A DNA stretch of 64,000 nucleotides. It comes from Pseudomonadota bacterium (GTDB lineage Bacteria; Pseudomonadota; Gammaproteobacteria; Burkholderiales; Rhodocyclaceae). Below are positions 58,966 through 60,288 of the stretch, one piece after another. Below the pieces are notes generated by a model. The model was not told where the DNA came from. It saw only the letters and a program-made list of their open reading frames with translations, and did no database searches. Both the position numbers and the translations under genes were made by a program. The stretch's first letter is position 1, and each line of letters starts with the position of its first letter. The stretch spans positions 1 to 64,000 of the forward strand of contig JAFEDI010000126.1 in NCBI GenBank assembly GCA_018241725.1, written 5' to 3'.

Positions 58966-59035
58966 ACGAGTGGAATCGAGTTTGCAGACTACCTTCCGAG
59001 AAAGAGATCGGGGAGCAGGAAAGCCGGCGCCGCGC

Positions 59036-59296
59036 TCATTCTGGCCGTGCCTGCAGTGCCTCGATCAGATCCCGCGCCTCCGCCGCGATCATGGCGCAGG
59101 CCCACAGATAGTTCTCCTGCTGGCTCGGCGCCTGCTGCCGGAAAACCTCCCACGCATCCCCGCAGGTCATTGCCAGCAGCGCATGCAACTGCTGCTGGCG
59201 CGCCGACAACTGGTCGAACAAGGCCATGCGCCCCACGTCGTCGGCCAGTCGGTACAGGCCCTCGCCGGGCGCCGGAAAACTCAGTGCGTGACTCAT
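59036..59296 (-). CDS. Small hypothetical protein (86 aa), second gene of the C4-linked cassette
   Basis: Helical, soluble protein with no signal peptide; starts MSHALSFPAPGEGLYRLADD and ends AEARDLIEALQARPE. The layout (N-terminal PG motif, central helices, C-terminal alanine-rich helix ending in an acidic-leucine run) is reminiscent of small DUF3077/XAC0095-like proteins, but that resemblance is weak and from memory. Its ATG overlaps the stop of the 42-codon ORF by 4 bp. Same strand as, and downstream of, the antisense RNA at 59581. Confidence 0.65.
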   Translation of the reverse strand: MSHALSFPAPGEGLYRLADDVGRMALFDQLSARQQQLHALLAMTCGDAWEVFRQQAPSQQENYLWACAMIAAEARDLIEALQARPE

Positions 59297-59421
59297 GCCG
59301 GCGCCCTCCCGTTCAACAGGAAATGCCGACCCAGCGTGGTCGGGAGGTCGGGGAAATGCTGCAGGGGAGGGGGCGAAGCGGATGCGTGCGGACGTGCGCA
59401 CGCCAGGGCGGGAAATGCCAT
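59293..59421 (-). CDS. Very short ORF (42 aa), first gene of the C4-linked cassette
   Basis: Starts MAFPALACARPHASASPPPL and ends GRHFLLNGRAPA. Support: AGGAG Shine-Dalgarno 9 nt before the ATG, and a 4-bp overlap with the next small gene. In P1/P7/P4-type systems the first small ORF after the C4/CI target is the translationally controlled one (icd/kil-like). Longer in-frame starts at 59556 would translate the structured leader and were rejected. Confidence 0.55.
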   Translation of the reverse strand: MAFPALACARPHASASPPPLQHFPDLPTTLGRHFLLNGRAPA

Positions 59422-59461
59422 GGTGTGATGCTCCTCGGTTTGCTGGACAGTTCCACCCCTC

Positions 59462-59517
59462 GCTTCCAAACGGGGGGCGGGCCAAAGCGAGGTTGGAAGA
59501 CCGGAACCAAGGGACCG
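59462..59517 (-). promoter_or_regulatory. Antisense-RNA target and alternative pairing region
   Basis: 59491-59517 is complementary to the small RNA over two blocks: one matches the RNA loop GTTGGAAG (target CTTCCAACC) and the other the following single-stranded AACCAAGG...GACCG segment. A second GTTTGGAAG at 59462-59470, nearer the RBS, can also pair with CTTCCAACC and makes a stem with CCTCGCTT. Pairing with the small RNA and pairing with the local strand are mutually exclusive, as in C4-controlled leaders. Confidence 0.65.
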
Positions 59518-59580
59518 GCAGGCCGAAGCCTCCCCGCCCGGCCCACCATTGATCAAGGCGCACCACGGGCGTGACGGACG

Positions 59581-59657
59581 AAAAAATAGCCGCGGCGCGG
59601 CTAATCGGTCCGCCTTGGTTCTCGGGCTTCCAACCCCGATCGTCTCTGTTTCGACGA
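59581..59657 (-). ncRNA. C4/CI-type antisense RNA
   Basis: About 77 nt from the predicted start near 59657 to the end of a T-run. Features in order: hairpin CGTC...GACG; hairpin TCGGG-GTTGGAAG-CCCGA whose 8-nt loop is antisense; single-stranded AACCAAGGCGGACCG, also antisense; and an intrinsic terminator (TAGCCGC-GCC-GCGGCTA followed by TTTTTT at 59581-59586). Size, two hairpins plus terminator, and a downstream complementary leader match the C4 antisense RNA family of phages P1/P7 and CI RNA of P4. No prophage structural genes are visible here. Confidence 0.75.
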
Positions 59658-59663
59658 CGCGGG

Positions 59664-59693
59664 AGTATCGACCGGGGGGCGGGGGGAGGTCAA
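59664..59693 (-). promoter_or_regulatory. Sigma-70-type promoter of the antisense RNA
   Basis: On the minus strand -35 TTGACC (59688-59693) and -10 GATACT (59664-59669) with 18-bp spacing, placing the start near 59657. The GC-rich spacer and good hexamers fit a strong housekeeping promoter. Confidence 0.6.
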
Positions 59694-59712
59694 GAAGGGT
59701 AGGGATTGCTAA

Positions 59713-60288
59713 TCAGTTTGATGCAGCCTCGAATTTGCCGGAATAGCGGAAAATTTGCCCAAACAACGGATGAGTGAGGCGGAAGTCCATGACGAAATGG
59801 CTTTCATCCATCGCTTCCTCGACGATAGTGGTGTGGCCCAGCACCATCCATTCGGGGATCGGCAACAGGATCGGTCCCAGCTTCACGACGAACCGGACGC
59901 CGCGATAATGCAGTCGGTTTCCTGTCACGTACGGGGCCATCTGTAGTCCGAGCACAGGATTGACGAATTCGATCACCTGGCCGTGGCCAGCCGATATCCA
60001 GAAGCTGTCGAAATGGATCACCTTCCCGTCCGGGTAGGTGATTGTGCGCCGCCAATGCTGGCGCTCGCCTGCGACGCTCTTTTCAACCACCGTTGGCACC
60101 TGCTGCCCACGGCGATTGACCAGCGCCCCGAATACCCTCAGCACACTCAGAAACGGCTGCATGAACCGAGGATACTCAATATCCATCCGGCCAGTGTCAG
60201 TCGTCGTACCGAACCGGTAATGGGCCTGGAGGGCCGGCGGCAGCTTGTCCCAGTCGGAGCCGAGCGCCTGTTGCATCAAGCTTTTCAT
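59713..60288 (-). CDS. DUF4166 domain protein
   Basis: 191 residues. Family blocks: LGSDWDKLPPALQAHYRFG, FWISAGHGQVIEFVNPVLGL and RFVVKLGPILLPIPEWMVLG. DUF4166 has no known function; it often accompanies DUF2269 and SDR proteins, as here. The open frame upstream of ATG 60288 belongs to the previous gene in another frame. 4-bp overlap with DUF2269. Confidence 0.88.
   Translation of the reverse strand: MKSLMQQALGSDWDKLPPALQAHYRFGTTTDTGRMDIEYPRFMQPFLSVLRVFGALVNRRGQQVPTVVEKSVAGERQHWRRTITYPDGKVIHFDSFWISAGHGQVIEFVNPVLGLQMAPYVTGNRLHYRGVRFVVKLGPILLPIPEWMVLGHTTIVEEAMDESHFVMDFRLTHPLFGQIFRYSGKFEAASN

What the first reader, a model, noticed from the sequence alone, without database searches (positions are those of the whole stretch)
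59460..59693. Promoter, C4/CI-type antisense RNA, terminator and complementary leader outside any visible prophage
Minus strand, in order: -35/-10 (TTGACC-18-GATACT), hairpin CGTC/GACG, hairpin TCGGG-GTTGGAAG-CCCGA, single-stranded AACCAAGG..GACCG, then TAGCCGC/GCGGCTA plus six U. About 90 nt further on, 59491-59517 is complementary to both the loop and the single-stranded segment, with only two small gaps. A third element, GTTTGGAAG, close to the RBS can compete for the same target. This is the logic of P1/P7 C4 and P4 CI RNAs (established), here placed before two tiny genes in a chromosomal region with no phage genes (seen). Whether it is a relic or a domesticated switch is open.
Basis: partly seen in the sequence, partly recalled or inferred. 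Interest (0 to 1): 0.75.

Follow-up and report, generated by a model that had tools for sequence, protein, structure and literature searches.

The report
Multi-copy C4-type RNA switch, own codes
A piece of phage-style RNA machinery, in which a short RNA can pair with and probably block the start of its own message, sits in 15 stand-alone copies in this bacterium's genome, each with a different pairing code and each placed in front of a copy of the same unknown small protein.

Summary
C4 segments a' and b' can pair with the leader (a1, b1), with the RNA just after C4 (b2) and with the Shine-Dalgarno (a2). ORF1 (42 aa) overlaps ORF2 (86 aa) by ATGA.

The locus is one of 18 C4 copies in a Zoogloea genome. 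Fifteen precede full-length ORF2 paralogues (pooled dN/dS 0.14). All 18 codes differ. Cognate pairing beats all 10,000 permutations at each of four contacts; in four cassettes with shared flanks the b code has switched between species with b1, b' and b2 changed together. Distant ORF2 relatives lie in viral contigs, one with the whole leader-C4-ORF2 unit.

Verdict: new variant of a known kind. The pairing logic is well supported by sequence; the sign of the leader contact and ORF2's function are open.

The parts
59664..59693 (-). sigma-70-type promoter: -35 TTGACC (59693-59688), 18-nt spacer, -10 GATACT (59669-59664)
   Evidence: sequence; a match to TTGA[CT]-N16-20-NATA[CT]T within 200 nt upstream of C4 in 14 of 15 own ORF2 cassettes and 48 of 85 copies
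59583..59658 (-).
   Evidence: Rfam isrK 39.8 bits (cut-off 50), E 6.5e-7 in 1 kb; c4-a1b1 19.8 bits (cut-off 46.7, E 0.024) at 59619-59668. Own genome: 17 isrK matches at E <= 0.001, 4 over the cut-off, each directly upstream of a C4 copy
59627..59636 (-). b1: GGGTTGGAAG, complement of b'
59613..59620 (-). a1: AACCAAGG, complement of a'
59581..59603 (-). intrinsic terminator TAGCCGC/GCGGCTA + TTTTTT between leader and C4
   Evidence: sequence; Rfam isrK alignment
59470..59553 (-). C4 antisense RNA (Rfam RF01695)
   Evidence: 62.7 bits, cut-off 45, model positions 1-87 of 87
59505..59514 (-). a' loop of C4 (UCCCUUGGUU), specificity segment
59490..59500 (-). b' single-stranded segment of C4 (UCUUCCAACCU), specificity segment
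59463..59469 (-). b2: TTGGAAG directly after C4, second complement of b'
59433..59440 (-). a2: AACCGAGG, overlapping the Shine-Dalgarno of ORF1; second complement of a' (one G.U pair)
59293..59421 (-). ORF1, 42 aa, probable coupling leader ORF; its stop overlaps the ORF2 start (ATGA, 59296-59293)
   Evidence: dN/dS pooled 0.80, window copy 0.84
59036..59296 (-). ORF2, 86 aa, predicted three-helix protein of unknown function, the gene thought to be controlled
   Evidence: 15 full-length copies in the genome, each next to a C4; dN/dS pooled 0.14, window copy 0.12; model mean pLDDT 84.7

Best explanation
A stand-alone C4-type RNA switch, probably of phage or phage-satellite origin, that keeps a small protein (ORF2) off by default. 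Inferred working: the promoter makes a leader that often ends at the terminator (a short IsrK-like RNA). Read-through makes the C4 RNA and the ORF1-ORF2 message. C4, freed by processing or acting within the message, pairs by b' and a' with b2 and with a2 at the Shine-Dalgarno, so that ORF1 and, through the ATGA overlap, ORF2 are not translated. The same a' and b' can also pair with the leader: either C4 binds nascent leader and favours termination (as P4 CI RNA does) or free leader RNA titrates C4 and turns translation on (as IsrK does); the sequence does not decide which. Each copy has its own a'/b' code, so copies should act largely on themselves. Shown by sequence: the parts, the four possible contacts, their covariation, selection on ORF2. 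Inferred: transcripts, processing, repression, sign of the leader contact. Unknown: what ORF2 does.
For: Rfam C4 over the cut-off. 18 of 18 own C4 matches over the cut-off, an isrK-like element directly upstream of 17 of 18 (4 of these 17 over the isrK cut-off). In the 18 own copies cognate pairing beats 10,000 permutations at each contact. By strict 6-mers a1 is found in 76, b1 in 81, a2 in 75 and b2 in 83 of 84 copies, all four in 68; shuffled partners give all four in 1.7 on average, at most 7. Code switches with b1, b' and b2 all changed to match, at sites with shared flanks on one or both sides: C42, C4:64662, C128:98451 and C9. Less certain: C47 (right flank shared, but ORF2 dS 0.86-0.96, so it may be a replacement), C140 (its flank matches a neighbouring G016 copy), C110 against G021 (an a switch, no flank comparison). 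ATGA overlap of ORF1 and ORF2 in 33 of 43 by script, ORF2 directly behind the a2 Shine-Dalgarno in four others. ORF2 dN/dS 0.14 (19 pairs), ORF1 0.80 (15 pairs): the protein is kept, the leader peptide seems kept mainly for its frame. A viral contig (L133) has integrase, leader, C4, ORF2 relative, CHC2 zinc-finger gene, capsid, protease and portal. Experimental precedent for the layout: IsrK-orf45-anrP (PMC4825925, abstract and sections 6, 12, 13, 21 read).
Against: No transcript data. The window's leader is below the isrK and c4-a1b1 cut-offs. The window's a2 contact has a G.U pair and fails the strict 6-mer test; on its RBS side the cognate C4 scores 35.5 against 35.0 for the best other C4 of the genome. 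Leader-C4 pairing (-19.4 kcal/mol gained on cofolding) is far stronger than C4-RBS pairing (-2.8), so in cis the leader may win. In other multi-copy genomes the RBS side is weak: in G333 cognate pairing stands out upstream (0 of 10,000 permutations) but hardly downstream (417), and in G425 neither side does. Two ORF2 relatives without a C4 match: G020:C49:12396 and G016:C196:56532; in some relatives other genes lie between C4 and ORF2 (G004 C65, G018 C14 and C49, G020 C65).
Confidence: 0.75

Rival explanations
1. IsrK-type activation is the main function (a variant of the best explanation, not exclusive of it): the message is silent because the leader is paired with C4 in cis, and the short terminated leader RNA acts in trans as activator. 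This comes close to the first reader's naming of the upstream RNA as the regulator.
For: Leader isrK-like in 17 of 18 copies; leader-C4 pairing energetically dominant in the window; measured activation in IsrK (PMC4825925, sections 6, 12, 13, 21). The window's a1 match is perfect while a2 has a G.U pair.
Against: In the own genome the RBS-side contacts a2/b2 covary with C4 as strongly as the leader contacts, which is not needed if the leader alone held the message silent.
Confidence: 0.35
2. Antitoxin-like module: ORF2 is harmful when made and C4 is its RNA antitoxin; distinct codes keep paralogous pairs from silencing each other.
For: Codes all distinct in each of the three richest genomes: 18 of 18, 15 of 15, 17 of 17; ORF2 maintained; P1 Icd, at the ORF1 position, inhibits host cell division (PMC8198154, passages).
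Against: ORF2 matches no Pfam, PHROG, NCBIfam or PADLOC family convincingly and no structure at E <= 0.001. ORF1 is near neutral, so ORF1 is an unlikely toxin.
Confidence: 0.2
3. Domesticated superinfection immunity: the copies are kept because each C4 RNA silences incoming satellites or prophages of the same code.
For: C4 and an ORF2 relative occur together in a viral contig; the code core of L133 (CCTTTGTC / TTCGCCAACCCC) equals that of the own cassette C4:22231.
Against: It does not explain purifying selection on ORF2. No viral contig carries the window's C4 core exactly and none fits a broader pattern. One shared code can be chance.
Confidence: 0.2
4. Decaying remnants of phages or satellites with no present function.
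For: Four ORF2 fragments without C4 in the genome; G020 C23:3068 has a truncated leader and broken ORF2.
Against: 15 full-length ORF2, dN/dS 0.14, compensated code switches.
Confidence: 0.06

Closest known systems
C4 antisense RNA / immI operon of phages P1 and P7 (Rfam RF01695; target motif c4-a1b1, RF03163)
   Same: C4 fold and length; a' and b' segments; target around a ribosome-binding site (PMC5320573 and PMC12197685, passages) and, by the Rfam name c4-a1b1 and recall, an upstream target; a short ORF (icd) then the effector gene (ant).
   Different: No phage around it; 15 stand-alone copies with different codes; the effector is ORF2 and not an Ant antirepressor.
IsrK-orf45-anrP of Salmonella prophage Gifsy-1 (Rfam RF01394)
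   Same: Leader RNA with terminator, a downstream RNA complementary to it (STnc1160), a short ORF translationally coupled to the next gene (PMC4825925).
   Different: The window's leader scores below the isrK cut-off; C4 here passes the C4 model; the effector differs; not in a visible prophage; many copies.
P4 immunity: CI RNA with seqA and seqC
   Same: A processed RNA with complementary sequences before and after it on one transcript (as described in PMC4825925, section 21).
   Different: Here the downstream target includes the Shine-Dalgarno and the loci are dispersed in the genome; an effect on termination is not shown.
Group 1 sRNAs of Acinetobacter baumannii (21 similar, C4-like)
   Same: Many C4-like RNAs in one genome with variable a' loop, apparently processed from longer transcripts (PMC5320573, abstract, passages and section 16).
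   Different: The parts read report two further sRNAs antisense to them but no matched leader and RBS partners per copy and no common downstream gene; here partners and the downstream gene are identified and the partners covary.

Membership tests
C4 antisense RNA (RF01695) | Covariance-model score over the curated cut-off | tested here: met
   62.7 bits against 45, positions 1-87 of 87
C4 antisense RNA (RF01695) | a' and b' complementary to a target overlapping a ribosome-binding site | tested here: met
   b2 perfect; a2 at the Shine-Dalgarno with one G.U pair, failing only the strict 6-mer test
C4 antisense RNA (RF01695) | Released from a longer transcript by RNase P | not testable with these tools
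   AUGGUGGG at the 5' side fits the GGW motif described in PMC5320573; no RNA data
P1/P7-type immI operon | Antirepressor gene downstream, in a phage genome | tested here: not met
   ORF2 has no convincing family match; no phage gene seen nearby. In the relative G004 a C4 copy does precede a Bro-N protein (one scanned)
isrK (RF01394) | Score over the curated cut-off | tested here: not met
   39.8 against 50 in the window; 4 of 17 own matches pass
isrK (RF01394) | Short RNA activates translation of its own read-through message | not testable with these tools
   needs expression data
c4-a1b1 (RF03163) | Score over the curated cut-off | tested here: not met
   19.8 against 46.7
P4 CI / seqA / seqC | RNA-induced premature termination of the leader | not testable with these tools
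   terminator present at 59581-59603; effect unknown

The most novel reading that the evidence does not exclude
The genome carries an RNA-coded repertoire: a family of phage- or satellite-derived switches, dispersed in the genome and shared between species, each selected to differ in its two-part pairing code from all others in the same genome, so that each small ORF2 protein is controlled on its own and, at the same time, the set of C4 RNAs may recognise incoming satellites or phages by code. Code and protein evolve separately: orthologous cassettes can swap code while ORF2 stays the same.
Probability: 0.25. Interest if true: 0.85.

Novelty: new variant of a known kind. Interest (0 to 1): 0.62.

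Why it matters
C4, CI and IsrK have been studied experimentally in a few phages. Here a natural set of 67 different a'/b' codes in 85 copies, mostly with matched upstream and downstream partners and with several code switches between related cassettes, makes the specificity rules of this RNA family directly testable and offers candidate sets of mutually insulated RNA regulators. It also suggests that phage immunity parts have become long-lived gene control in a bacterium, with an unknown, conserved protein family as the output.

Tried and rejected
Upstream hairpin RNA as the C4 antisense RNA: rejected, the C4 model hits the downstream element. Transposon-like mobility of the window copy: no clean empty site found; upstream and downstream blocks are conserved in different relatives and rearranged. 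ORF2 as DUF3077: ORF2 has no DUF3077 match and profile comparison is weak (probability 4.85), although two proteins behind C4 copies of relatives do match DUF3077. ORF2 in phage and plasmid records: none by tblastn with one query, E <= 0.01. Viral contigs with the window's C4 core, or a broader C4 pattern: none. Structure search with the ORF2 model: 0 matches at E <= 0.001 in PDB and BFVD; a three-helix bundle is too simple to name. Cognate pairing in G425 by a crude whole-core test: not significant (3,992 upstream and 5,789 downstream of 10,000 permutations reach it); G320 41 and 1,705; G333 0 and 417. Selection for distinct codes: within genomes 0 of 237 ORF2 pairs share both segments, but unrelated pairs between genomes rarely do either (3 of 616 below 75% identity; 12 of 27 at 90% or more), so selection for distinctness is only suggested.

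Full report
What was checked. On the minus strand the window holds, in order, a promoter (59693-59664), a leader with a hairpin whose loop is GTTGGAAG and a following AACCAAGG, an intrinsic terminator (59603-59581), an 84-nt element (59553-59470) and two short ORFs. The Rfam scan at curated cut-offs gives one match in the 64 kb: C4 antisense RNA at 59470-59553 (-), 62.7 bits, cut-off 45. A permissive scan of 59000-60000 adds isrK at 59583-59658 (39.8 bits, cut-off 50, E 6.5e-7) and c4-a1b1, the target motif of C4, at 59619-59668 (19.8 bits, cut-off 46.7, E 0.024); a fourth match, MIR9677, is chance.

Where it is. The window is contig 29 of a 5.93-Mb genome in 151 contigs. A scan of named genomes with the ORF2 alignment gives 38 loci: 18 in records named Zoogloea, 17 in two MAGs named only 'Proteobacteria bacterium' (SZAS-77, SZAS-78), 3 elsewhere. 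Contig lengths identify G016 as Zoogloea sp. LCSB751, G009 as Z. ramigera, G018 as Z. oleivorans, G004 as isolate STD2_9, G020 as SZAS-77 and G021 as SZAS-78.

Copies. The genome has 18 C4 matches, all over the cut-off. isrK matches number 17 at E <= 0.001, 4 over the cut-off, each directly upstream of a C4 copy; only C128:44628 lacks one. The ORF2 profile finds 15 full-length copies and 4 fragments. All 15 lie behind a C4; the other three C4 copies (C128:44628, C51, C127) have no ORF2, and integrases lie 6 kb and 11 kb from the first two. Of the 15 cassettes only C128:98451 shares a contig with an integrase match, 60 kb away; some cassettes lie near contig ends (C91, C140, C120), where one side cannot be seen. 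In 60 genomes, own included, 23 have C4 and 9 have ORF2. In a class-wide draw 24 of 369, own included, have C4; only 11 candidates were scored per genome, so copy numbers there are lower bounds.

Pairing. I parsed 85 copies (18 own, 67 of relatives; one further match of 32 bits in G042 was left out). Complements of a' and b' are found upstream at about -64 and -78, just before the terminator, and downstream at about +26 to +36 (the Shine-Dalgarno) and +0 to +3. Cognate score against non-cognate mean in the 18 own copies: a'-a1 19.25 and 11.68, b'-b1 17.5 and 13.08, a'-a2 20.03 and 11.32, b'-b2 17.61 and 13.3; none of 10,000 permutations reaches the observed value at any contact. With strict 6-mers, one copy without pairing (G020 C71:186276) dropped, a1 is found in 76, b1 in 81, a2 in 75 and b2 in 83 of 84 copies, all four in 68; 200 shuffles of partners give 1.7 on average and 7 at most. 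The window copy is among the 16 that fail, because of the G.U pair in a2.

Codes. There are 67 different a'/b' pairs in the 85 copies. In each of the 11 genomes with more than one parsed copy all codes differ: G000 18 of 18, G016 15 of 15, G020 17 of 17, G004 6 of 6, G018 4 of 4 and six with 2 or 3. With a and b scores added, the cognate leader is strictly the best target of 15 of 15 own ORF2-cassette C4s and the cognate RBS side of 14 of 15; in G016 15 and 15 of 15, in G020 13 and 16 of 16. Some related cassettes differ in code with all partners changed. With flanks shared on one or both sides: C42 against G016 C11 and G020 C49, C4:64662 against G016 C706 and G020 C71, C128:98451 against G016 C536, C9 against G020 C23:2065. 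Less certain are C47 (ORF2 dS 0.86-0.96), C140 (flank fits a neighbouring G016 copy) and C110 against G021 C45 (an a switch; no flank match). The neighbours C4:22231 and C4:24311 have 98% identical ORF2 but different codes with matching partners. Related copies are not independent, so permutation counts are not strict probabilities; the code switches are the stronger evidence.

The genes. A script found ORF2 close behind C4 in 43 of the 85 copies; copies cut by contig ends or with genes between are missed. ORF1 (31-50 codons in these cassettes) ends in an ATGA overlap with ORF2 in 33 of 43 by script; by coordinates the two C4-contig copies also do, and by reading C120 has a 16-codon ORF1 with the same overlap; four have ORF2 directly behind the a2 Shine-Dalgarno. 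dN/dS is 0.14 for ORF2 (19 pairs) and 0.80 for ORF1 (15 pairs); some pairs share a member, and site orthology was not shown for all. ORF2 is predicted as three helices (mean pLDDT 84.7). No family or solved structure matches convincingly.

Origin. Four viral contigs hold distant ORF2 relatives (36-44% identity); of these only L133 has a C4 match (73.5 bits). L131, L133 and L134 carry Phage_capsid genes, L131 and L133 an integrase. L133 has the whole unit: leader, terminator, C4, b2, a2 Shine-Dalgarno, ORF2 relative, then a gene with a CHC2 zinc finger. This suggests descent from phages or phage satellites; 'satellite' is my label, and the contigs are short.

How it likely works. The layout resembles P1/P7 immI (roles of C4, icd and ant from passages of PMC8198154 and PMC8546580; details recalled) and IsrK-orf45-anrP (PMC4825925: abstract and sections 6, 12, 13, 21 read). 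In the latter, short IsrK activates translation of its own read-through message through a coupled short ORF, and the paper names SeqA of P4-like phages as a structural homologue. I infer repression of ORF1-ORF2 by C4 at the Shine-Dalgarno, plus a leader contact that either promotes termination or titrates C4. Folding of the window favours the leader-C4 contact over the RBS contact, which leaves the IsrK-type reading open.

Other multi-copy genomes. G333 (10 copies), G425 (6) and G320 (6), of other families, also have all-different C4 cores. G425 repeats a leader-C4-short ORF-~90-aa protein layout with a different-looking protein. By a crude test cognate pairing is clear upstream in G333 (0 of 10,000) and G320 (41), weak downstream (417 and 1,705) and absent in G425.

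Novelty. Multi-copy C4-like RNAs are known in A. baumannii (21 sequences, PMC5320573: abstract, passages and section 16). I found no report of stand-alone C4 cassettes with matched leader and RBS partners in front of a common protein family in the searches; the library lacks most subscription papers and no supplements were read. A table in PMC12189769 (passage) lists isrK next to C4 in Xylella. Weinberg et al. (PMC2864571, passages) list c4 and c4-a1b1.

Noticed in passing
L155 (G320:C9, units at 1700, 2055, 2653 and 3007 of the contig), L156, L157: A 1.5-Mb genome of another family has four C4 units within 1.4 kb; a' is the same in five of six copies while b' differs in all six, by eye each with matching b1 and b2. 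A protein that by eye resembles Bro-N antirepressors (not scanned) follows in L157.
   Followed up: partly
L150-L154 (G425): Six leader-C4 units, each followed by a 27-32-codon ORF and an 89-92-aa protein; in four the RBS segment is constant and by eye no longer fits a'.
   Followed up: partly
L141-L149 (G333): Several C4 copies with unusually long a' loops that fit the leader but, by eye, not the RBS.
   Followed up: partly
L139 7904-8096 (G020:C13): The counterpart of the window cassette is preceded by a second, partial copy of the YCII-like gene that also follows it, as if a segment had been duplicated.
   Followed up: no
G020:C49:12396 (L115) and G016:C196:56532: ORF2 relatives without a C4 match.
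   Followed up: partly
L133 2480-2680: The viral contig has the same a'/b' code core as the own cassette at C4:22231.
   Followed up: partly
several C4 loci of relatives, e.g. G003 C20:2984, G004 C51:47123: Another recurrent first ORF of about 47 codons (MATxALxCxRxHA...YRALR..VGPVLAWR.AFAWR); the one scanned has no Pfam match.
   Followed up: no
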